Origin: Thermosynechococcaceae cyanobacterium Okahandja
GTDB taxonomy: Bacteria > Cyanobacteriota > Cyanobacteriia > Thermosynechococcales > Thermosynechococcaceae
DNA length: 64,000 nucleotides
Direction of reading: 5' to 3'
Assembly (NCBI GenBank): GCA_041530395.1
Contig: CP136945.1
Coordinates: 1,550,001-1,614,000 of the forward strand
The notes under the pieces are model-generated. The model worked only from the letters and a program-made list of their open reading frames with translations. It had not been told where the DNA came from and searched no databases. This document shows, one piece after another, positions 32,981 to 45,949 of the stretch. The translations under genes and the position numbers were made by a program. How positions within the stretch are numbered: position 1 is the first letter of the stretch; each line of letters opens with the position of its first letter.

Positions 32981-34963
32981 CTTTCCGTTTGATCCCCTTC
33001 CCCACAAGGAGGAAGGCAATGAATAAGGCGAAGAGGAACCAACCTCTTCGCCGTTTCCATTCGATCTCCTTCCCCGCAAGGAAGAGGGCTATGAAAAAGT
33101 GAGGGCGGCTCAAGAAAGAGGGATGTTTCCATTCAATCGCCTTCCCCGCAAGGAGGAAGGACGAAGAGCCTGTGGCTCAAGTCGTCGTTGCCGATCTTGA
33201 GTTTCCATTCGATCGCCTTCCCCACGAGGAGGAAGGCCAAGATTGTCAGGCAGTGGGCGAAATCCAAGGCGGTGCCGTTTCCATTCGATCGCCTTCCCCA
33301 CGAGGAGGAAGGGCGAAGAAAACGATTCGGTTTGTGTAAGCAATGCGTTCGAGTTTCCATTCGATCGCCTTCCCCACGAGGAGGAAGGCATCAACACGAC
33401 GATTAAGGCGCGGAACACCGTCAAGTTTCCATTCGATCGCCTTCCCCACGAGGAGGAAGGCATGGGTTGAACTGACAGGGGTGCCGGAGACAACCATCCG
33501 GGTTTCCATTCGATCGCCTTCCCCACGAGGAGGAAGGTTGGGAAGCGGACGAGAACGCCGGGTTTTTGTATACCGGTTTCCATTCGATCGCCTTCCCCAC
33601 GAGGAGGAAGGTCGCGGAGCGACAATTACTCCCGAAGGAGTATGAACTCCTGTTTCCATTCGATCGCCTTCCCCACGAGGAGGAAGGGCGACACGGGTCA
33701 CTGTTCCAGATCCACCCTGTTCGTGTTTCCATTCGATCGCCTTCCCCACGAGGAGGAAGGGTCTGCGGACGCGGCGGTTTGCACTACCGAAGTGTTTAAG
33801 TTTCCATTCGATCGCCTTCCCCACGAGGAGGAAGGTCAAGAAGCTTTTGGAAAAGCGAGAAGACATTCTTGTGGTTATTGGTTTCCATTCGATCGCCTTC
33901 CCCACGAGGAGGAAGGAAGGAAGGAGGCACCGCTATGATTATCGAAGAATTCAACGGGTTTCCATTCGATCGCCTTCCCCACGAGGAGGAAGGTTTCACG
34001 CTGTCCGCTTCAGACGTGGTAAAAGCGGTTGTTTCCATTCGATCGCCTTCCCCACGAGGAGGAAGGGCCCCGCCAAATGATCCGACCTCGCTAAAGGCAT
34101 ACTGTTTCCATTCGATCGCCTTCCCCACGAGGAGGAAGGAAAAATACCTAACTGGCTTTCAACACTTGCTTAGTTGTTTCCATTCGATCGCCTTCCCCAC
34201 GAGGAGGAAGGTGCCCATTAAGCTGTACAACAGCAGCTGGGCCTTTAGCTGTTTCCATTCGATCGCCTTCCCCACGAGGAGGAAGGTCTTTTGGGTTGGT
34301 CAGCGTGCACGCGGAGGCTTTGATGGGTTTCCATTCGATCGCCTTCCCCACGAGGAGGAAGGTTCGCCGAAGGGAACTGGGCTGGAAAAGCAAACGGCTT
34401 TGAGAGTGGAGTTTCCATTCGATCGCCTTCCCCACGAGGAGGAAGGTCGTTACCCGTGTAGTAGGAAAGTTTGACCAGTTCTAAAGTTTCCATTCGATCG
34501 CCTTCCCCACGAGGAGGAAGGTGTAGTCCGACGTGTTCAAGCCAGCCCCGCCAAATGAGTTTCCATTCGATCGCCTTCCCCACGAGGAGGAAGGTTGTCC
34601 GGCTTTGGTCGATTTCATCTGGTCGAAGGTGGAGTTTCCATTCGATCGCCTTCCCCACGAGGAGGAAGGCTAGGGACGAGGAATGAAACTAATTTGTTCA
34701 CAGGTTTCCATTCGATCGCCTTCCCCACGAGGAGGAAGGCTTCGACTTGGTGGTTACTCAGTTGTCCGTTAAAATCCTGTTTCCATTCGATCGCCTTCCC
34801 CACGAGGAGGAAGGTTGCCGATCTTGACAGCGATGATAACGATGAGCCTATGGGTTTCCATTCGATCGCCTTCCCCACGAGGAGGAAGGACCGCTAACGT
34901 TTCCGACACTGACAGTGATGGTAACGAGTTTCCATTCGATCGCCTTCCCCACGAGGAGGAAGG
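32981..34963 (-). CRISPR. CRISPR array, 27 repeats and 26 spacers (type III-B associated)
   Basis: The 36-bp repeat on the plus strand begins GTTTCCATTCGATCGCC and ends CCACGAGGAGGAAGG. Spacers are 34-48 bp, mostly 36-41. The three leftmost repeats (32981-33016, 33053-33088, 33125-33160) carry 5, 5 and 3 changes; all 24 from 33201 onward look identical. Degeneracy on the left and cas1/cas2 on the right put the leader at 34964 and above, so transcription should run on the minus strand. There the repeat ends GAAUGGAAAC, like the GAAAC 3' ends of other CRISPR repeats. CCTTCC/GGAAGG inside the repeat can form a 6-bp stem. Confidence 0.97.
33027..33052 (-). terminator. Perfect hairpin in the leader-distal spacer, terminator-like
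   Basis: A 10-bp perfect inverted repeat, GGCGAAGAGG and CCTCTTCGCC around a 6-base loop, fills the last 26 bases of the first spacer. On the minus strand, the inferred direction of array transcription, it is followed by TTATTCATT. It could be the array terminator rather than an acquired spacer. The U-tract is weak, so this is inference. Confidence 0.5.
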
Positions 34964-35206: not shown

Positions 35207-35497
35207 ATGCCTCCCTACACTGTTTTTTCTTTCATTCGCAGTCTAATTGTTGCCTGCTGCAATGGTTTCTTTACCCTAGTGATTCTGCTGATTGCCCCCC
35301 TTGGGTTAGCAGCAGTGGTTATGACAACTCTGCTGGTTATGGTGAGTAGCCTTTTAGTAGGTGTGGCGGTTGATCACCTGTTGCGGCCATTATCTCCCCG
35401 TCGGCTCAGGCACCACGAAGCTGCTCCCTTATCAGCACGGCAGCGCCCACAACTCATGTCCCGTCGGCAGTCTAGCGATATTGAACGCTACTTCTAG
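35207..35497 (+). CDS. csx18: Small membrane protein, Csx18-like CRISPR-associated
   Basis: A 96-residue protein with two closely spaced hydrophobic segments (about residues 9-34 and 36-55; GFFTLVILLIAPLGLAAVVM) and a basic, probably cytoplasmic tail ending SSDIERYF. Its position between leader and cas1, and the ILLIAPLGLA core, resemble the Csx18 family of cyanobacterial CRISPR loci; this is recalled, not searched. Its stop overlaps the cas1 ribosome-binding site (TAGGAGG), so it is in one operon with cas1 and cas2. The function is unknown. Confidence 0.65.
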   Translation: MPPYTVFSFIRSLIVACCNGFFTLVILLIAPLGLAAVVMTTLLVMVSSLLVGVAVDHLLRPLSPRRLRHHEAAPLSARQRPQLMSRRQSSDIERYF

Positions 35498-35507
35498 GAG
35501 GCAGCGC

Positions 35508-36485
35508 ATGAGTCAGACGCTTTACCTGTCGCGCCAAGGGTGTCATGTGTCTCTTGAGGCAGAGTACATTATTGTTCGCCACCAGAAAAATCTTATACAC
35601 CAAGTTCAACTGCCGCTCATTGACCTGATTTTGATCTTTGGTTACTCACAACTGACCACCCAGCTCATTCGTGCCTGTTTACAGCGGGGAGTCACCATTG
35701 CCTACCTCTCTAAGTCAGGGTATTGTTATGGCCGTTTATTGCCTTTGCAACGGTCTTACCCTACTTTCATTGGCTTACAAGCGCAGTTGAGTGATGCCCA
35801 AAAACTGTTTGTTGCCCAGCAACTCATTCATGCCAAGCTACGCAACTGCCGCGTTATTTTGATGCGCCAGCAACGACGGCGATTTTCTCCCAGCCTTGAA
35901 CTAAGCATTAACTGTCTGGATCGACTGGCCGAACGCAGCCTTCAGGCAGACACGCTACAAGTGCTTATGGGCATTGAGGGGAGTGGTGCACAGCATTACT
36001 ACAGTGCCCTAGCCGACTGTTTCCAGCATCCGCAGCTTTCGTTTCAGGGACGTAGCCGCCGCCCCCCGGGCAATGAAATTAACGCCCTCCTCAGTTTCGG
36101 CTACCAAGTGCTTTGGAATCATCTGTTGGGCATTGTCGAAAACCTTGGCCTTGATCCCTATGCGGGTTGCCTCCACCAACCCCATCACAACCATGCCGCC
36201 TTAGTATCGGATTTGCTGGAACCGTTTCGCGCACCCATCATTGATTCCCTTGTATTACAACTGGTCAATCGCGGCATTATTCGTCCTAAAGATGATTTTC
36301 GTTTTGAAGAGGGCGGCTGTTTCCTGAATGAGCACGGACGACAGCGATTTCTCAAGCATTTTATTCAGCGGATGGAGCAAGCCACTCAGGATGAGCCTTT
36401 TTGGCGGGTACTCACACGGCAGGTGCGTGCCTTTGGCCAGTGGTTGCAGCACCCGGAACACCTCTGGTGCTATCGAATTAGCTAA
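35508..36485 (+). CDS. cas1: CRISPR integrase Cas1
   Basis: A 325-residue metal-dependent integrase that inserts new spacers with Cas2. Metal ligands are visible: E157 (MGIEGSGAQHYY), H223 (CLHQPHH) and D235 (VSDLLEPFRAPIID). The N-terminal beta domain (TLYLSRQGCHVSLEAEYIIV) precedes the helical catalytic domain. It starts at ATG 35508, seven bases after AGGAGG; the longer open frame upstream overlaps the csx18-like gene and is rejected. It is not fused to a reverse transcriptase. Confidence 0.95.
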   Translation: MSQTLYLSRQGCHVSLEAEYIIVRHQKNLIHQVQLPLIDLILIFGYSQLTTQLIRACLQRGVTIAYLSKSGYCYGRLLPLQRSYPTFIGLQAQLSDAQKLFVAQQLIHAKLRNCRVILMRQQRRRFSPSLELSINCLDRLAERSLQADTLQVLMGIEGSGAQHYYSALADCFQHPQLSFQGRSRRPPGNEINALLSFGYQVLWNHLLGIVENLGLDPYAGCLHQPHHNHAALVSDLLEPFRAPIIDSLVLQLVNRGIIRPKDDFRFEEGGCFLNEHGRQRFLKHFIQRMEQATQDEPFWRVLTRQVRAFGQWLQHPEHLWCYRIS

Positions 36486-36489
36486 TCTG

Positions 36490-36771
36490 ATGTTGCTGTA
36501 CGTCATTGCCTACGATATTCCCAACGATAAGCGCCGCCGTAAAGTTGCCGAATTGTTAGAAGGCTACGGCCAGCGGGTGCAGTTCAGCGTCTTCGAGGCA
36601 AGGCTCACCCCCAAACAACTCCAACAACTGCGCGATCGCCTCCGTCGTCGCCTCAAATTTAGCGAAGATCACGTCCGCATTTATCCCCTCAGTCATCACA
36701 CCGAGAGCAGCATCCTCATTCTGGGCATTGGTTGCTCTTCCCTTGAACCACCCACCAGTCAGGTTGTTTAA
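36490..36771 (+). CDS. cas2: CRISPR-associated protein Cas2
   Basis: A 93-residue ferredoxin-fold partner of Cas1 (MLLYVIAYDIPNDKRRRKVAELLEGYG, QRVQFSVFEARLTPKQL, DHVRIYPL). The start is ATG 36490, 4 bp after cas1; the longer frame into cas1 is rejected. The stop overlaps the convergent CARF-RelE gene by 4 bp. Confidence 0.95.
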   Translation: MLLYVIAYDIPNDKRRRKVAELLEGYGQRVQFSVFEARLTPKQLQQLRDRLRRRLKFSEDHVRIYPLSHHTESSILILGIGCSSLEPPTSQVV

Positions 36772-37886
36772 TGCAACCCCCGATCAAGGGCATCCAACAC
36801 AAAACAGTTCCCCTCAAAATGACCCAGAATGCGCTTCGCATCTTGATCCGCCCAAGCATCCATTTCATGGGTCGAGGGTGGGCAGGGGTTCCCTTTAAGC
36901 GCCTTAAAATCGAGCGATCGCGGATTATATCCATCCCGCAAATACCGCGCCAACTGATCAATGCGCTCATTCACCTGCACCAACCGATCAGGGGCAAGCT
37001 CCGCCACACTCCGCTGAAAGCGATCGCTAAAAATAATCTGGTCACTGGGGGCAGGATGCAAGGCTTCGGCGTAAAGCGCCTTTTTAGTGCGCTGCCAAAC
37101 CAACTCCCCCCAAGGGGACAACGCCACCTGATCATCCACTTGCAACAACAAGGTTTCCGGAATGTGATCTAGATGCGGCGCAGGCAACCCCAAGCGCAGT
37201 TGCCGGAAGGTCACGAGGTTCTCTCGCACTGTTTCCGCCGCCACAAGCCGCACCGGCAGACGCGGAATCCGGATCAAATCAGAGGTTTCAAACACATACA
37301 CCGTTTCATCGGCATAGAAAAACGCCAGCGTCTGGAGGAAGCCTTGCACGCTTTTGAACCCCCCGGTCAGGTTAAAAATCACCCGAAACCCCTGTTGCCG
37401 ATACCCATCAACGGTCGTCTCGCACCACTCAATTAAATCCGACAGAGCCGACTGAAAGGCTTGCATATCTCTGGTTTGCAGATCCGTCTGCCGATAAACA
37501 TAGGTTTCTGGGCAGCCCTGTTTTTTTAACCAGTCGGCAATTAACTCTGCGGTTTGTTGCCCCAGCCACGTATCGGTACTCAGCAGATAGTGGCAGTCAC
37601 CGCGCTTGGGGTGGAACTGTCCCCCATACAGCTTAACAATGCCGTTAATTTCAGCAGACATCTTGGTTGCCATGGCCAAGTCTGTACCCTCAGCAAGCAG
37701 TGTGTCCCGCACTTGGCAGATCAGCCCCTCAAGCACCGGGCGATCGCTGGCCGGAATGGCCGCCACCGCTGGTTCATTGGCATACCTGCTGACAAGCGTT
37801 CGCTGCTCTGCCGCCGCTGCATTCGTGAGGAGGCTAGTGCCGCAGGGCGAGAGCACAAAAAGTCGTTGTGAGGTCGGGGAAGGCAT
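36768..37886 (-). CDS. CARF-domain effector with C-terminal RelE-like domain (Cami1-like)
   Basis: A 372-residue protein. The N-terminal half is a CARF cyclic-oligoadenylate sensor: FVLSPCGTSLLTN at residues 10-22 (ligand loop) and NLTGGFKSV at 172-180, the motif of Csm6/Csx1-type and APE2256-family CARF proteins. A winged-helix-like linker (about 252-275) follows. The C-terminal 85 residues (IIFSDRFQRSVAELAPD, LDFKALKG, THEMDAWADQDAKRILGHF) look like a RelE/ParE toxin fold. Known CARF-RelE proteins (Cami1) cleave mRNA on the ribosome when bound by cA4. It faces cas2 and is divergent from the cmr operon. The RelE call is by eye. Confidence 0.75.
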   Translation of the reverse strand: MPSPTSQRLFVLSPCGTSLLTNAAAAEQRTLVSRYANEPAVAAIPASDRPVLEGLICQVRDTLLAEGTDLAMATKMSAEINGIVKLYGGQFHPKRGDCHYLLSTDTWLGQQTAELIADWLKKQGCPETYVYRQTDLQTRDMQAFQSALSDLIEWCETTVDGYRQQGFRVIFNLTGGFKSVQGFLQTLAFFYADETVYVFETSDLIRIPRLPVRLVAAETVRENLVTFRQLRLGLPAPHLDHIPETLLLQVDDQVALSPWGELVWQRTKKALYAEALHPAPSDQIIFSDRFQRSVAELAPDRLVQVNERIDQLARYLRDGYNPRSLDFKALKGNPCPPSTHEMDAWADQDAKRILGHFEGNCFVLDALDRGLH

Positions 37887-38087: not shown

Positions 38088-41000
38088 ATGTACTACGAAC
38101 GCAAACTCTTTGCCCTGCTCCATGATCCCTACCTCAAGGCTCTCTACACCAATAAGGCCAGTAAAGGGGCGTGGCAGCAGGTAACGTGCCTTTCTAGCCG
38201 CAGTGAGGAACTCGAAGCGTGGTGGAATCAGCACCGGGGGGTGAGTGCCGACCACATTGCCTCCGCCTCCGATCGGGTGAGTTTTACCCCTCAGATGCGC
38301 ACCTCCCCCAGAACGACAGGTGGGGTGACCCAAGTTGAAATTTGCCATCCAATCAGCGGTGCCAAAAGCACCCTTGACTTTGCCTTTGCTGGCAGCCTGA
38401 GCGACAACACCCTAGCCACCGTTGAGCAGCGGGCGATTTGGCAGCAGATTCGCCACGAGCCGGATGCCCAAAAAGTGTTTTGGTGGTTCTGGCGGTTTTA
38501 TGGCGAGGCCATTGCGAACGATCAGGCCAGCCAATCGCAAGCCGTCTCCGCCAAAGATGTGCTGCTGCTTCCTGCCGATACCCGCATTCCCGACTGCCCC
38601 CTTGAAGCCCATACCGCCATTACCGCTGCGCTGGCGGGCACTCTTTTCCCTCAGGAGGCGGCAGCCCCTAACCAGCCCCAGCACCCATGGCTGCTCATGT
38701 TTTCCTTTTCGCCGGTGCAGGACTTCATCAAAGCCTCGCGCAAGCTGCTAGATTTTTGGGCCGGTTCCTATCTGCTGCACTACCTCAGTGCTCAGGTGTG
38801 CTGGTTTTTGGCCGAACGCTACGGGCCAGATGTGGTCATTACCCCCAACCTCTACCAGCAAACAATTATTGATGCCCTGCTGTTGCAGAAATATCCCGAT
38901 TTTGCAGCGTACTTTGAGCACTTGCAGATGCAAAACCCCGTAACCGCCTTCCAGACCAAAGCAAGTGCCAGTCTGGTGACAGCGGGCTTTCCGAATGTCA
39001 TTACCGCCCTCATCCCAGCCCAAGACAAAGACACCATTGGCCATGAACTCCAAGAGCATCTCCGCCAGACGTGGCTGAGCATCGGCACGAAGGTACGGGA
39101 AGCCATCAAAGCGAGGGTGCGCAGCCTTTATGAAGAAGCAGAATCAGTTGCCCAAATTGAGGCTTGGATTGCTCAGGAATTTCCGCCACCGTTGCAGGCG
39201 GAGTTACAAAAAGAATTCCACAGTTGGCAGCACGGTGGCCGCTGGGAATGGAACGCCCTGTGGCAAGTGCAACTGGAGCACTTTTGGGAGAGCTACTGGA
39301 TTGCCCTGCCCCTCGGGGATCCCGAGCAGTCCTTGGCCTGTTGGCGGGGGGCACCCACCTACCCCCAGTGGAAAAGGGCACAAACGGTCTTAGCCAACAG
39401 CGAGGCAACGTTGCCCACTGAAGTGGAGGAAAAGGTTTACGCCACCATTAACGTTGGAACCTGGTGGCCGCTGCTACAACAACGCTTGGGGCAAGCCCTC
39501 TCTGCCCTCAAAAATACTCGGAACTGGCAGTTTCCGGCATCTCCGGGAGAGCGTTCCTCCATTTCTGGCGCTTACAGTGCCCTGCACCCTAACCTGCTGT
39601 ATCGCGAACCGTTTCGGGAAGGGCACGGCTTGCCCACCAGTTCAATGCGGTTGTTTTGGCGCGTGATGGCTCAGGCCTTTCCGGGGTTGTTTAACGGTAC
39701 AGAGCGGCTGAATGCCATTGAAGTCACAAAGCGCATGGCATGGCAGTATGGCGGTGTGGCGGCCTCCCTTGGGGTGACGTGTCCGGAAGATGACTACGAA
39801 AACCTTGTGCGCTTTCCCAATGCCAGCAGTATTGCGGCAGCCCGCTTTATGGTGCAGCAGCCGGAGCAAGTGAAGCAGTATTGGTGCGAACTCCAGCAAG
39901 AATTTGCGGGCGATGAGCAGTTGCGCCCCTATCGCGATCGCTTTGGGGGGAAAACCCGTCGCCCCAGCCACATTCCCCAAGTGGATGAGACCCTCGGTGA
40001 CTACAATGGCGTGATGTTCTCGCCAAAGTGGCTCTCCGAAGATGTGGGGATTGACAACAAACAGGATCTGGCCGCCCTGCGGAGTGCGGTGGACTGGGCG
40101 CAAAAGCGCTTGAAGTGGGGCGATCGCTCCCCGGCGGATTGGTGGTGCATTCTCCTTGCCGATGGCGACAGCATGGGGGACTACGTGCGCGGCCACAGCC
40201 TCAAGAGCTACCGCGAGTATGTGGCCAGCAATATCGTGGCGGACATTGACCGGCAGGCTCAAACGCTCCCCGAAGGGCAAGCGTGGCAAACCTTTATCAA
40301 CAGCACGCCGAAGCGGATGGGACCGGCCACCCATGTGGGACTGAACCGCGCCCTGTTGGATTTTTCCAACCGGTTGGTGCCCTACCTTGTCGAGCAGCGC
40401 TACTGTGGCCGCGTCGTCTATAGTGGTGGCGATGACGTGATGGCGGTTTTACCCCTCGAAGATGCCCTGCCCTTAATTCAGGTCCTACGGCAGGCATGGT
40501 GTGGCGGCAGCGATCCGGCAGGCGAATTTGAGCCACGGGGTGGCTACTGGCAAACCGTTCAGGGGAGCAATGCGGCGGATCACCTAGGAATGCGCCGTCT
40601 GTTTACGATGGGGCAGGGAGCCACCATGAGTATGGGGGTGGTGATGGCCTATAAAAGCGTGCCCTTGCCCACCGTCTTGGAGCACCTCTGGCAGGCAGAG
40701 AAAGAGCAGGCAAAGAAACTACCCGGTAAGGATGGCCTCTGTTTTCGGGTCATTTATGGCTCGGGGAATGTTTTGGAAGCCGTCCTCAAGGGACACCTAC
40801 TGGAGCAATGGCAGTGCTTGGTACAGCAGGCGAATGAGGAGGTGAGTCCATTCTTGTACCGCTTGCTGAGTGAGTTGCCGCAGCACTGCTGGTTGGGCGG
40901 CGATCGCGCCCTAGAGGTGGCGATCGCAAGTCTTGCTAACCGCCGCGAGAAAGAATTCCCCGACAATTTTATCGAGGGATTTTGTCAGTGGTGCCACGAG

Positions 41001-41156
41001 TGGGAACAATGGGCGCTAGCACACCCCGGGCAGCGGGGCACCGATCTGCAAGACTTCCTCCGCCTGCTGCGTTTGACCGCCTTCTTGATTGATAAACGGT
41101 TTCCGTCTCAGGCCACCCCCTCTAGCCGTCCGGTGGTTAGCCTCGGTCGAGTGTAA
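38088..41156 (+). CDS. cmr2: Cas10/Cmr2, type III-B effector large subunit
   Basis: A 1022-residue Cas10. The N-terminus has HDPYLKALY. The first palm-like segment contains LLMFSFSPVQDFIKASRKLLDFWAGS, the usual Cmr2 signature. The second palm has LADGDSMGDYVRG and the polymerase motif YSGGDDVMAVLP with GGDD at residues 780-783. An intact GGDD predicts synthesis of cyclic oligoadenylates from ATP once the complex binds target RNA, fitting the adjacent CARF effector. It is slightly longer than typical Cmr2. It is the first gene of the effector operon. Confidence 0.95.
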   Translation: MYYERKLFALLHDPYLKALYTNKASKGAWQQVTCLSSRSEELEAWWNQHRGVSADHIASASDRVSFTPQMRTSPRTTGGVTQVEICHPISGAKSTLDFAFAGSLSDNTLATVEQRAIWQQIRHEPDAQKVFWWFWRFYGEAIANDQASQSQAVSAKDVLLLPADTRIPDCPLEAHTAITAALAGTLFPQEAAAPNQPQHPWLLMFSFSPVQDFIKASRKLLDFWAGSYLLHYLSAQVCWFLAERYGPDVVITPNLYQQTIIDALLLQKYPDFAAYFEHLQMQNPVTAFQTKASASLVTAGFPNVITALIPAQDKDTIGHELQEHLRQTWLSIGTKVREAIKARVRSLYEEAESVAQIEAWIAQEFPPPLQAELQKEFHSWQHGGRWEWNALWQVQLEHFWESYWIALPLGDPEQSLACWRGAPTYPQWKRAQTVLANSEATLPTEVEEKVYATINVGTWWPLLQQRLGQALSALKNTRNWQFPASPGERSSISGAYSALHPNLLYREPFREGHGLPTSSMRLFWRVMAQAFPGLFNGTERLNAIEVTKRMAWQYGGVAASLGVTCPEDDYENLVRFPNASSIAAARFMVQQPEQVKQYWCELQQEFAGDEQLRPYRDRFGGKTRRPSHIPQVDETLGDYNGVMFSPKWLSEDVGIDNKQDLAALRSAVDWAQKRLKWGDRSPADWWCILLADGDSMGDYVRGHSLKSYREYVASNIVADIDRQAQTLPEGQAWQTFINSTPKRMGPATHVGLNRALLDFSNRLVPYLVEQRYCGRVVYSGGDDVMAVLPLEDALPLIQVLRQAWCGGSDPAGEFEPRGGYWQTVQGSNAADHLGMRRLFTMGQGATMSMGVVMAYKSVPLPTVLEHLWQAEKEQAKKLPGKDGLCFRVIYGSGNVLEAVLKGHLLEQWQCLVQQANEEVSPFLYRLLSELPQHCWLGGDRALEVAIASLANRREKEFPDNFIEGFCQWCHEWEQWALAHPGQRGTDLQDFLRLLRLTAFLIDKRFPSQATPSSRPVVSLGRV

Positions 41157-41172
41157 ATAAGGAGGATGAATA

Positions 41173-41385
41173 ATGGCAATGGATGAGCAAATTTATCAAT
41201 ATATTCAACAGCTTTCCACAGCCCAGAAAGCAGAGTTACTTGATTTTGTTCAGTATCTACTAATAAAAGCAGAAAAAGACCAGAAAAAAGACTGACCTGC
41301 TTTATCTTTGGCATTAGCTATGGACGACATGGACAATGAACCTGACCTTTATAGTCTTGACGACATCAAGGTAGTTTTTTCATGA
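41173..41385 (+). pseudogene. Antitoxin gene with an in-frame stop
   Basis: It starts at ATG 41173 with a good AAGGAGG and reads MAMDEQIYQYIQQLSTAQKA for its first 20 codons. It meets TGA at 41293-41295 after 40 codons, then continues in the same frame as PALSLALAMDDMDNEPDLYSLDDIKVVFS to TGA at 41383. The two parts together resemble short antitoxins paired with MazF/PemK toxins. The TGA probably replaces a tryptophan or similar codon. The final stop overlaps the toxin start as ATGA. Confidence 0.6.
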
Positions 41386-41621
41386 AAAAAGTAAGTCAAG
41401 TTGTGTTATTTCATTTGCCAAAAACTGATTTACAGCGAAGTAAGTGACGACCTGCCCTTTGGCTTGCAAGATTACCTTACAGATAGGACGATTGGTTAAT
41501 TTGCATGATCTCTTCCCAACTAAGTCAATGTATTTCTGGATTTGATGAACTTGTTCAGGAGTATGATGAGGATTTTGCTCAAAGTGAACCTAAAGTCAAT
41601 AGTGTGATTCGATTGGGTTGA
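41382..41621 (+). pseudogene. MazF/PemK-like toxin gene with two in-frame stops
   Basis: From ATG 41382 one frame reads MKKVSQVVLFHLPKTDLQ..., then TGA (41445), RPALWLARLPYR, TAG (41484), DDWLICMISSQLSQCISGF and on to VNSVIRLG, TGA (41619). RPAL followed by DDWLICMISSQ is characteristic of MazF/PemK mRNA interferases. Frame is kept throughout, so decay is by point mutations. It lies between cmr2 and cmr3 inside the effector operon. Confidence 0.65.
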
Positions 41622-41691
41622 CAGCCAATGGAAGCAGTCTCTGAAATATATTTCCAACTGAATTCTCCAAAACCTGTAAAAAACTATTTAA

Positions 41692-42813
<1,122 letters not shown>

Positions 42814-42873
42814 CCCCCAAAACTGCCATGGAGAAATTAATAAGCGGCTCTAACCCTGTTTGGAACATGAACC

Positions 42874-43671
42874 ATGCTGAATCTGATCTATCTCTATCTG
42901 CTGTCGCCCCTGCACACGGGCGGTACAACCCAAGAAGGAAACCTATTGGGCATTGCGCGGGAATCCCATACAGAATTGCCCTACATTCCCTCTAGCACCC
43001 TGCGCGGTCGGTTGCGATCGCTCACTGAGCCTAGCCAACGCAATCGCCTCTGGGGCAACACCATCGAAGATGTTACGGGAGGCGGCGATACAAACCTCAG
43101 CCAAGGCCAAGTGTGGGTGGGGGATGGCTCGCTGCTGTGGGTACCCGTCCCCTCCCTCAGCCATGGGGTTATCTGGATTAGCTGCCCAATGCTCCTCCAG
43201 CGCTGGCGGCGGCTTACCGCGAGTCCTTCGACTCCTGTGGCTCCCTATAGCACTAACTTGGCCAAGAACCGACCGGTTTACCTGAAAGATGCCATTCTCA
43301 AAGGGAACGAACTTAAGGAATGGCCGAATTGGCAGGAATGGGTACCTGCCCGCAACTCAACCCAAATTGAGCGAGTCCTAGTGCTACCGGATCAGCACTG
43401 TGCCACCCTCATTCAAATGAGCCTGTGGCGGCAAGTCAAAATCAAGCTCAACCAACACAAAACCGTTGAAGGCGGATTCCGCTACGAAGAAGCCATTCCC
43501 CCCGATACCCTGATGTACGCTCCGTGGGGGACTGTAGCTCAACTGAATGGAGCCGCCCCGAAAGCCAAAAGTGACCTTCAAGATCTGTTGGATAGCCACA
43601 GCATCCTGCAAATTGGCGGTCAGGAAAGTCTTGGCCGGGGCTTTGTTCAAGTCGTTAGCTTAGGGAGTTAG
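42874..43671 (+). CDS. cmr4: Type III-B RAMP backbone protein Cmr4
   Basis: A 265-residue Cas7-type subunit that polymerises along the crRNA. It has LSPLHTGGTTQEGN, then IARESHTELPYIPSSTLRGRLR, and the C-terminal GGQESLGRGFVQV (G-rich loop). In well-studied Cmr4 proteins an aspartate lies in the GVVDQPIQRE loop before the RExHT motif and cuts target RNA. Here that stretch reads GNLLGIARE and has no aspartate. It ends 2 bp before cmr5. Confidence 0.9.
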   Translation: MLNLIYLYLLSPLHTGGTTQEGNLLGIARESHTELPYIPSSTLRGRLRSLTEPSQRNRLWGNTIEDVTGGGDTNLSQGQVWVGDGSLLWVPVPSLSHGVIWISCPMLLQRWRRLTASPSTPVAPYSTNLAKNRPVYLKDAILKGNELKEWPNWQEWVPARNSTQIERVLVLPDQHCATLIQMSLWRQVKIKLNQHKTVEGGFRYEEAIPPDTLMYAPWGTVAQLNGAAPKAKSDLQDLLDSHSILQIGGQESLGRGFVQVVSLGS

Positions 43672-43673
43672 CC

Positions 43674-44063
43674 ATGGCCTTTGATCCCCGTACAGTGGCG
43701 CAGCCAGTTTACACCGCCCTAAGGAGGCTCCGCGACACCACAACCGAAAAAGAGCGGCTGAGTGAGCAAAAAAGTCAGGCGGTTGAACTCTACACCTACC
43801 TAGCAACGTGGGGCTTGATGCGCCTCAAAGCCGAAGAACAGGCCTTGAGTCAAGAGGGCAAGAAGCAAGTGGTCAAAGCTTTTTTCAATGCCCTTGAAGA
43901 AATCTCTGGCGTGGCAAACCTTGCCAACGATAGAGGACTAGATACCCTCAAGAATTTAGAGACCGATTCCTACCTAGGCTTAACAGCTTTAGGCCTGCAA
44001 CTGGCCCGTGAATTTAGCTTCTGGACCACTGCCCTTTACGCTGGCATTAAGGAGGCCGACTAA
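43674..44063 (+). CDS. cmr5: Type III-B small subunit Cmr5
   Basis: A 129-residue helical protein, the Cas11-type small subunit of Cmr complexes. The YLATWGLMRLKAEEQAL and DRGLDTLKNLETDSYLGLT segments fit Cmr5. It follows cmr4 by 2 bp and precedes the cmr6-cmr1 fusion by 5 bp. Confidence 0.88.
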   Translation: MAFDPRTVAQPVYTALRRLRDTTTEKERLSEQKSQAVELYTYLATWGLMRLKAEEQALSQEGKKQVVKAFFNALEEISGVANLANDRGLDTLKNLETDSYLGLTALGLQLAREFSFWTTALYAGIKEAD

Positions 44064-44068
44064 TCCCT

Positions 44069-45949
44069 ATGGTATTCGACAGACCCCAGCGCCAACTACC
44101 CAATCATCAGGCAACGCAACGCCACCCGTCTGCAAAATCCCAGCATAAAAATCCCACTAATTCTGGGAGTCATAACAAAGGTGGCGACAACAACCCACCC
44201 CCCTCGCCATGGCTGGGGCATCCCTACGACCAGCAGCCCAATCCTCATCCCACCGCCAGTTTTGTTGAATATCTCCGCTGGATGCGATCGCCCGATAGCC
44301 CTTACGAAGATGGAACAAAAATCGAAATCCTTACCAAAGCGGAGACCGGGAACTACAGCCAGCGCCTGAAGGTACTGACGGAGCGTACCCGTCAATTGGC
44401 AGGCAACGAGAACTGCATTGAAGTTACCTGTTCTTGGCGCATCCGCGTGGGTGGCCACCGTGGCCCCGAAAGCATTCTGCTCCCCGCTTTTGATGCCCTT
44501 GGGATGCCCTATATTCCCTCGAGTACCTTGCGGGGGGTCGCCCGTGCCCAAGCGTTACGGGAACTCCAGTCAGAGGCAGAAGTGGCAAAATACTTTGGTT
44601 CTTTAGAGGCCGAACCGGGCGATCGCGCCGGCAAAATAATTTTCTTTGATGCCTATCCCCTACCCCAGCAGAAGAATGGTGGCCTTGCGGCGGATATGGC
44701 CAATAACCTATGGAAATGGGAAAATGGCAACCTCCAGTACTCTGCTAACCCCAATGCCTTTTTCTCGCTGCGGCAGGTCACATTTCTCATTGCCATTAAG
44801 CCCACAGCGCATTGCTCCGCCGAAACGCTGCATCAGGTGCGGCACTGGTTAATTCAAGGACTCACCCAAGGCATTGGTTCCCAAGTGAACGCAGGTTACG
44901 GAGCCTTGGTTGAACCGAAGAAACAGATCGAGCGTGGCTTTTTTAGGGTTAACTTTACCCTCCAAGGGCAACTCATCCATGGACACCAAAGATTTACCCA
45001 GTGGACATGGAATGATCAAAGACTACAATGGCAAATGCGGGGTCAGCCACAAGCAGAAGTGCGTTCAACAGCCTTTAAGTCAATGCTGCGTTATTGGTTC
45101 CGCGCCCTAGGCTGTGGAATATTGCCTACTGCTGAAGTTCAACGCCTTGAAGGGTTAATTTTTGGTGCAATTCAGCCGCAGCCCCAACAGGGGTACTTGC
45201 GGGTACGAGTTCTCAATGGCCAAGTAACACAACCCGAAGCCCGCCCCAATCATCAAGGTAGAAATGCTCCCTGTGGCGAACAACAAGGAACTTTAGTGCT
45301 TGACTATTCCTTAGAAGTACCTGATAGCCAAAAGGAAAACTTGGCACAGTTAGCTAAAACCCTGACTTGGTTGATGTTTCATCTTGGCGGTATTGGTCAA
45401 GGAGCGCGTCGCCCTTGCTATTCTCGTAGAAACCGTGAACGAGCACCTTGGTGGCGGGGGTCTTCGCTGATTCCAAAAGAGGAAAGCCCATTTTGGGAAT
45501 TGCCAGACACTGCTCGTAAATTTCAAACATTATTTAAGAGGCAATTACATAACTTCTATCGAGCTTTCAGTCAGCTAACACAGCAGCCATTATTCCCCGC
45601 AGAGAAACTGAGAGGGGGTGCTCCTACTCGCGAAAGGTGGCAAGAGGCGGTAGATCGGCACTGTAAAATTATTGTGTGTAGCGGCGAAGAAGAGTTTGAT
45701 AAACCCTTTGCACTGGCGGTACTCCATTCTCCAGAATTCAAAATTCGTAACCGCAGAGATCAGCTAGATTATGATGGTCGTCTTTGTGGTTCAGTACAAC
45801 CTCAGGTTCAACCCTCACCGGTATGGATTGCTGATCTAGGGGAGTATCAAGTCGTTACCGTCTTTGGGGCAACGCAGCCACCGCGAAACCAATATCTTGA
45901 CGAACTTAAACGCCGAGCAAGGGAGTATTATCAACTGTGGCCTCTATGA
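44069..45949 (+). CDS. Cmr6-Cmr1 fusion RAMP protein
   Basis: A 626-residue protein, about twice the size of one RAMP. The first roughly 75 residues are low-complexity and polar. Residues about 110-285 form a Cmr6-like RAMP domain (MPYIPSSTLRGVAR at 145-158; GSQVNAGYGALVEP). A second RAMP starts near 290, with EVRSTAFKSMLRYWFRALG at 329-347, the pattern of Cmr1 (STAIKGMLRFWWRA), and GGIGQGARRPCYSRR later. Since no separate cmr1 is present, the fusion would complete the Cmr set. The stop TGA overlaps the next ATG. Confidence 0.82.
   Translation: MVFDRPQRQLPNHQATQRHPSAKSQHKNPTNSGSHNKGGDNNPPPSPWLGHPYDQQPNPHPTASFVEYLRWMRSPDSPYEDGTKIEILTKAETGNYSQRLKVLTERTRQLAGNENCIEVTCSWRIRVGGHRGPESILLPAFDALGMPYIPSSTLRGVARAQALRELQSEAEVAKYFGSLEAEPGDRAGKIIFFDAYPLPQQKNGGLAADMANNLWKWENGNLQYSANPNAFFSLRQVTFLIAIKPTAHCSAETLHQVRHWLIQGLTQGIGSQVNAGYGALVEPKKQIERGFFRVNFTLQGQLIHGHQRFTQWTWNDQRLQWQMRGQPQAEVRSTAFKSMLRYWFRALGCGILPTAEVQRLEGLIFGAIQPQPQQGYLRVRVLNGQVTQPEARPNHQGRNAPCGEQQGTLVLDYSLEVPDSQKENLAQLAKTLTWLMFHLGGIGQGARRPCYSRRNRERAPWWRGSSLIPKEESPFWELPDTARKFQTLFKRQLHNFYRAFSQLTQQPLFPAEKLRGGAPTRERWQEAVDRHCKIIVCSGEEEFDKPFALAVLHSPEFKIRNRRDQLDYDGRLCGSVQPQVQPSPVWIADLGEYQVVTVFGATQPPRNQYLDELKRRAREYYQLWPL

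What the first reader, a model, noticed from the sequence alone, without database searches (positions are those of the whole stretch)
33161..34853. Two pairs of spacers come from overlapping protospacers
The spacer at 33161-33200 ends in TTGCCGATCTTGA, the same 13 bases that begin the spacer at 34815-34853. The spacer at 34522-34558 ends in GCCCCGCCAAATGA, the 14 bases that begin the spacer at 34067-34103. Joined end to end, each pair gives one continuous open frame (the first reads ...VADLDSDDND...). Matching ends in both pairs are unlikely by chance and suggest repeated sampling of the same invader over time.
Basis: partly seen in the sequence, partly recalled or inferred. Interest (0 to 1): 0.62.

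Follow-up and report, generated by a model that had tools for sequence, protein, structure and literature searches.

The report
CRISPR spacers resampling one invader
A cyanobacterium's CRISPR memory holds two pairs of entries that appear to have been copied at different times from the same short stretches of an unidentified invader, which is expected behaviour for such systems and not a new mechanism.

Summary
In a 26-spacer array beside Cas1, Cas2 and a type III-B (Cmr) operon, spacer A3 (33161-33200) ends with the 13 bases that begin A25 (34815-34853). A21 (34522-34558) ends with the 14 bases that begin A15 (34067-34103). Simulated arrays never exceeded a 12-base overlap in 1000 trials, and about 1.4e-5 same-strand overlaps of 13 or more are expected. 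Among 108 spacers read from five arrays of this genome, no other pair overlaps end-to-start by 10 or more, apart from two pairs of identical spacers. Best reading: separate captures of overlapping protospacers from one invader or invader lineage (positions 24 and 2, 12 and 6 from the leader). The newest spacer, A26, resembles A25 (22 of 28 bases), hinting at a third sampling. No invader was found in the phage, plasmid, IMG/VR, GTDB or cyanobacterial genome searches made. Overlapping spacers are documented elsewhere, so the finding is ordinary. It is useful mainly as a size estimate of the sampled DNA (about 10 kb, roughly 5-80 kb, under uniform sampling).

The parts
32981..34963 (-). CRISPR array A: 27 repeats (36 nt; 24 perfect, three decayed at the low end), 26 spacers of 34-48 nt
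   Evidence: crRNA sense inferred as the - strand because the shared leader-like flank is at the high end and the repeat then ends ...ATGGAAAC
33161..33200 (.). spacer A3, 24th from the leader; last 13 bases = first 13 of A25
34815..34853 (.). spacer A25, 2nd from the leader; overlaps A3 by 13 nt, 22 of 28 bases like A26
34067..34103 (.). spacer A15, 12th from the leader; first 14 bases = last 14 of A21
34522..34558 (.). spacer A21, 6th from the leader; overlaps A15 by 14 nt
34890..34927 (.). spacer A26, nearest the leader; resembles A25 (22 of 28) and the joined A3+A25 (24 of 30)
   Evidence: 1 of 670 simulated arrays reached the A25/A26 score
34964..35008 (-). start of the probable leader: 45 bases nearly identical beside arrays B (G000:C1 about 794668-795522) and C (about 2770969-2771384); the far end of the leader was not mapped
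35361..36485 (+). Cas1 (374-aa reading frame; no reverse-transcriptase match)
   Evidence: TIGR00287 E 1.2e-67
36490..36771 (+). Cas2
   Evidence: PF09827 E 2.1e-23
36768..37886 (-). Cas_APE2256 / TIGR02619 family protein (ring-nuclease or Csm6/Csx1-like accessory; role inferred)
38088..45949 (+). type III-B effector operon: Cas10/Cmr2, Cmr3-like, Cmr4, small ORF in the Cmr5 position, 626-aa RAMP protein with a Cmr6 match
   Evidence: Cmr3 and Cmr6 matches are below their curated cut-offs

Best explanation
The array is the memory of a type III-B CRISPR system in a cyanobacterium (Thermosynechococcus-like; the genus name is recalled, not from a call). Cas1-Cas2 captured two pairs of partly overlapping fragments, in separate events, from the same stretches of one invading element or of closely related strains. 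Shown: exact end-to-start sharing, its improbability by chance, the cas genes, and the order in the array. Inferred: that array order equals time, that the donor is a phage or plasmid, and that the members of a pair share a donor. If spacers were drawn uniformly, two overlaps among 26 spacers fit a total sampled sequence of about 10 kb (roughly 5-80 kb). That means one or two small genomes, or a few favoured regions, supplied most of the array.
For: Exact overlaps. Null never above 12 in 1000. The only such pairs between different spacers among 108. They are out of register, unlike the real duplications in the same genome. Leader flank shared by three arrays, decayed repeats at the far end. 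Besides the array itself the joined sequences have no match in the host genome at E <= 1, so they are foreign or lost. The sequence following A3 and A21 matches the repeat's anti-tag at 0 and 2 of 8 positions, compatible with non-self type III targets (the anti-tag rule is recalled). A diverged relative, A26. Target-size simulation.
Against: No donor was found: phages, plasmids (41, 42), IMG/VR codon-degenerate patterns for the pairs (10, 11, 22, 48, zero each), GTDB genome contigs (47 zero; 65 one gut Clostridia contig, an ordinary-looking gene, read as chance in 76), 388 cyanobacterial genomes (66, 67: weak matches in 7 and 3 other genomes, read as chance in 68 and 76). Without it a shared donor is inference. 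Metagenomes could not be scanned. A25/A26 similarity may be convergent coding of a D-x-D-x-D-x-N acidic loop.
Confidence: 0.92

Rival explanations
1. The second member of each pair was taken near the first because acquisition is directed: existing immunity, or a free-end or transcription hot spot, steers Cas1-Cas2 back to the same site (primed-like or hot-spot acquisition). This is a variant of the best explanation, not exclusive of it.
For: Two or more overlaps are unlikely if all 26 spacers were spread over 80 kb (P 0.026) and somewhat unlikely at 40 kb (0.078; same strand only, 0.022). All three related cases (A3/A25, A15/A21, A25/A26) are in the same orientation. The two spacers nearest the leader resemble each other, and one of them overlaps an old one.
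Against: A small donor of 10-20 kb gives two overlaps easily (P 0.57 and 0.25), and with the 42 spacers of arrays A-C 40 kb does too (0.36). The shift has no constant direction: the newer spacer is downstream in pair 1 and upstream in pair 2 on the + strand. Priming is a type I property by recall and I know of no established case for type III.
Confidence: 0.2
2. The shared ends are produced inside the array by recombination or template switching between spacers, not by separate capture.
For: Two pairs of identical spacers exist in other arrays of this genome (D11/D12, E23/E25), so arrays do rearrange.
Against: Shared sequence lies at the end of one spacer and the start of the other; unequal crossing-over keeps register. 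No neighbouring spacer is duplicated in this array.
Confidence: 0.03
3. The shared ends are a chance match.
For: None found.
Against: Longest chance overlap 12 in 1000 simulations; expectation 1.4e-5 for one overlap of 13 or more, and two are present.
Confidence: 0.01
4. The donor is a cyanophage of the Saffermanviridae-like lineage, and A3, A25 and A26 target the acidic loop of its tail protein (a specific form of the best explanation).
For: A codon pattern built from A25 and A26 gave 2 IMG/VR contigs, one of which encodes a cyanophage tail protein (L030: VSDPDSDGNDE; phrog_21185, E 3.5e-151; 20 related phage records, all of cyanobacteria). A26 matches it at 28 of 38 bases (reversed control 24), the best fraction among 42 spacers.
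Against: The contig was selected by a pattern made from A25/A26. In 60 viral loci (some of them the same virus twice) the other spacers are near their reversed controls: next best are A20 (27 of 39, control 24) and A16 (25 of 36, control 23), while controls beat the real spacer by up to 3 elsewhere (A19, 27 against 30). The loop is an insertion present in 5 of 10 aligned relatives. The other pattern hit (L029) is a 100-aa protein without a PHROG match.
Confidence: 0.08

Closest known systems
Overlapping de novo spacers of Sulfolobus solfataricus (PMC3468723, passages seen; PMC4390879, one passage seen)
   Same: Spacers of 36-43 bp from overlapping protospacers of one conjugative plasmid, assembled into contigs.
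   Different: There they arose in hyperactive uptake in culture, with an invariant CCN PAM. Here they sit in one natural type III-B-associated array and the deduced flanks show no common motif. PMC3468723 states that overlapping spacers rarely occur in CRISPR loci of natural Sulfolobus strains.
Hot-spring Synechococcus and cyanophage CRISPR/virome studies (PMC2612747, PMC5017753, PMC6129581; search listing with the start of the abstract only)
   Same: Thermophilic cyanobacterial arrays recording local phages.
   Different: Those studied viromes or metagenomes of the same mats; here no donor is known.
RT-Cas1 type III systems (PMC5513706, one passage and the start of the abstract seen)
   Same: Type III effector with a Cas1 adaptation module.
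   Different: Cas1 in the window shows no reverse-transcriptase match.

Membership tests
CRISPR array with adaptation module | near-identical direct repeats with unique spacers of similar length | tested here: met
   27 repeats, 26 spacers of 34-48 nt
CRISPR array with adaptation module | cas1 and cas2 beside the array | tested here: met
type III-B CRISPR-Cas | Cas10/Cmr2 | tested here: met
   TIGR02577, 171.9 bits, cut-off 79.4
type III-B CRISPR-Cas | Cmr4 | tested here: met
   TIGR02580, 118.5 bits, cut-off 87
type III-B CRISPR-Cas | Cmr3, Cmr6 and Cmr1 | tested here: inconclusive
   Cmr3 22.5 bits (cut-off 100.4) and Cmr6 42.7 bits (cut-off 51.1) are below cut-off; the 626-aa protein has two RAMP stretches; no Cmr1 match among the ORFs scanned
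type III-B CRISPR-Cas | small subunit Cmr5 | tested here: inconclusive
   129-aa ORF at 43674-44063 in the expected place; no NCBIfam match and only weak unrelated Pfam matches
type III-B CRISPR-Cas | Cas6 for processing (may act in trans) | tested here: inconclusive
   PF10040 not found in the whole genome; that model rang in only 2 of 14 control genomes and other Cas6 models were not tried
overlapping-protospacer spacer pair | exact end-to-start overlap beyond chance | tested here: met
overlapping-protospacer spacer pair | contiguous joined sequence in a donor | tested here: inconclusive
   no donor

The most novel reading that the evidence does not exclude
A type III-B array repeatedly returns to the same few dozen bases of an invader: an old spacer (A3) and the two newest (A25, A26) all fall on one acidic-loop coding site, and A15/A21 on another. 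This could mean spacer capture guided by existing crRNA targets or transcripts, with a Cas1 that carries no reverse transcriptase.
Probability: 0.1. Interest if true: 0.5.

Novelty: new member of a known kind. Interest (0 to 1): 0.2.

Why it matters
The pairs give 60-66 nt of apparently contiguous sequence of an unknown invader, with one flank of each of the four protospacers, which single spacers do not give. They also allow a capture-recapture estimate of how much foreign DNA the array has sampled. The phenomenon itself is already documented.

Tried and rejected
Open-frame argument: rejected, since 97.0-97.8% of random joined sequences have at least one open frame. Strand bias of open frames over the 42 spacers of arrays A-C: none (81 against 82). 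Spacers shared with relatives: the repeat (up to 3 mismatches) occurs in 2 of 11 genomes of the genus, the host included, and spacers of the other one (G019) were not read. The joined pairs have only weak matches in the 28 other family genomes searched (best E 0.15 and 0.076). The G021 79% match lies in a stretch where no copy of this repeat and no array-like repeat family was found. Saffermanviridae as donor: only A26 stands out among 42 spacers in 60 viral loci, 1.05 Mb, and it had been used to choose the contig. Weak class-level hits: 7 loci for pair 1 and 3 for pair 2, plus the Clostridia contig L095. In one search my full-length comparison landed away from the reported match for several of them (at least L097, L100, L103, L104, L095); one search read the reported places for all but L098, which one search had placed correctly. 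They lie in assorted open frames, several of them long, with no frame reproducing either joined peptide; L097 and L104 are exact over 20 and 19 bases, L095 encodes VGSFGGAGLNT as the pattern demanded. Per-genome E-values of 0.0003-0.008 over 388 genomes are what chance gives. The 21-aa peptide of pair 1 has no Pfam match at E 1. Spacer A13 (ribosome-site-like) as a lead: zero in IMG/VR. One search was a pattern for spacer C4 with positions beyond the spacer added by me, run on the window only; it has no bearing. Papers: those not named elsewhere were seen in listings only; passages of PMC6452263, PMC5513706 and PMC3330103 do not concern overlapping protospacers.

Full report
What is there. The window carries a CRISPR array at 32981-34963 with 27 copies of a 36-nt repeat and 26 spacers of 34-48 nt. 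The three repeats at the low end are decayed. The high end runs into a flank whose first 45 bases are nearly the same beside two more arrays of the genome, B near 0.795 Mb (11 spacers) and C near 2.771 Mb (5 spacers). I take the high end as the leader, so higher coordinates mean newer spacers. Next to it are Cas1 and Cas2, an accessory Cas_APE2256-family gene and a type III-B operon with Cas10/Cmr2 and Cmr4 above their curated cut-offs, and Cmr3 and Cmr6 matches below theirs. The genome has two other Cas1 loci. One is a 553-aa ORF whose N-terminal part looks Cas4-like (recalled resemblance), near an array with 36-nt repeats and 25 spacers; the other lies near a 29-nt-repeat array with 41 spacers. 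By recall these look like types I-G and I-E; I did not test that.

The overlaps. In 1000 simulated arrays with the same lengths and first-order base habits the longest end-to-start overlap was 12, seen once. The analytic expectation at 13 or more is 1.4e-5 on the same strand and 2.9e-5 counting both. Over the 108 spacers read from five arrays no other end-to-start overlap of 10 or more exists between different spacers. The long sharing that does occur elsewhere is in register over the whole length (D11/D12, E23/E25), which is what duplication within an array gives. The two pairs are out of register, so separate capture from overlapping protospacers is the straightforward reading.

A possible third sampling. 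A26, the spacer next to the leader, agrees with A25 at 22 of 28 bases and with the joined A3+A25 at 24 of 30. The A25/A26 score was reached by 1 of 670 simulated arrays. In the frame with VADLDSDDND the counterpart in A26 is VSDTDSDGNE. This may be a diverged strain, another repeat unit, or a convergent acidic loop; I cannot tell which.

What does not help. Frames: joined pair 1 has 3 and joined pair 2 has 1 of 6 frames open, while random sequences average nearly 3, so openness is no evidence. Open frames over the 42 spacers of arrays A-C show no strand preference, 81 against 82.

How much DNA was sampled. If the 26 spacers fall uniformly on G bases, two or more overlaps of at least 10 nt have probability 0.91 at 5 kb, 0.57 at 10 kb, 0.25 at 20 kb, 0.08 at 40 kb and 0.03 at 80 kb; at 2 kb exactly two was not seen in the simulation, and at 160 kb two or more has probability 0.006. 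With all 42 spacers of the three arrays the value at 40 kb is 0.36 and the best fit of those tried is 20 kb. One modest phage or plasmid, or a few favoured regions, therefore suffices. No special mechanism is needed.

Search for the donor. Phages: only short chance-level matches and none for A26. Plasmids: two matches at E 0.4 for pair 1 and none for pair 2. IMG/VR with codon-degenerate patterns: zero for pair 1 strict, its upstream half, and both reading directions of pair 2, and two contigs for a loose A25/A26 pattern. GTDB contigs: zero for pair 1, one gut Clostridia contig for pair 2. 388 cyanobacterial genomes: besides the array itself, 7 genomes for pair 1 and 3 for pair 2 with weak matches, which on inspection look like chance. 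Most of these searches would miss a donor that is not close to the spacers in sequence.

The cyanophage lead. One of the two IMG/VR contigs (L030) carries a 1083-aa tail protein related to those of Pf-WMP3, A-4L and the hot-spring phage CHP58. At one loop it reads VSDPDSDGNDE, and A26 matches there at 28 of 38 bases (the same contig under L036). The loop is present in five of ten aligned relatives and absent in the others. The other 41 spacers are near their reversed controls in 60 viral loci: A20 reaches 27 of 39 against 24, A16 25 of 36 against 23, and A25 26 of 39 against 25 at the same loop, while some controls score higher than the spacer (A19, 30 against 27). Because the contig was picked with a pattern from A25/A26, this is a lead and not evidence.

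Mechanism. Shown: the overlaps and their significance, the gene neighbourhood, the positions 24 and 2, and 12 and 6, from the leader side. Inferred: Cas1-Cas2 captured each fragment independently at different times, and crRNAs transcribed from the leader side guide the Cmr complex to transcripts. The flanks deduced from the joins match the repeat anti-tag at 0 and 2 of 8 positions, which by the recalled rule for type III would leave the targets open to attack. The newer spacer lies downstream in one pair and upstream in the other, so no directional walking is seen.

Relation to the literature. Overlapping spacers assembled into contigs were described for Sulfolobus taking up a conjugative plasmid (PMC3468723, passages; PMC4390879, passage). 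The first notes that overlapping spacers rarely occur in CRISPR loci of natural Sulfolobus strains, so two pairs in one natural array are somewhat notable but not new in kind.

Noticed in passing
G000:C1 about 794668-795522 and 2770969-2771384 (L025, L026): Two further arrays with near-identical repeats and leader start; probably served in trans by the Cas1-Cas2 of the window (I did not look for cas genes beside them).
   Followed up: partly
L093 12481-14328 and L094 6464-9078: Two more CRISPR arrays with different repeats (36 and 29 nt) near other cas1 genes; each holds a fully duplicated spacer (D11=D12, E23=E25).
   Followed up: partly
window 33917-33957; L026 spacer C4: Spacers A13 and C4 look like a ribosome-binding site plus ATG start on the strand complementary to the inferred crRNA, as if aimed at starts of genes.
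   Followed up: partly
window 44069-45949: 626-aa RAMP protein with a Cmr6 match and two RAMP stretches; may be a Cmr6-Cmr1 fusion.
   Followed up: no
L093 6983-7984: 333-aa ORF made of tandem near-identical segments (LSLSQVWEELAGYSFSPSLSDGSRG...), probably a DNA repeat array read as an ORF, close to the second cas locus.
   Followed up: no
L094 spacers E9 and E39: Share TTGATACGCCGA with similar flanks, possibly diverged versions of one protospacer in the 29-nt-repeat array.
   Followed up: no
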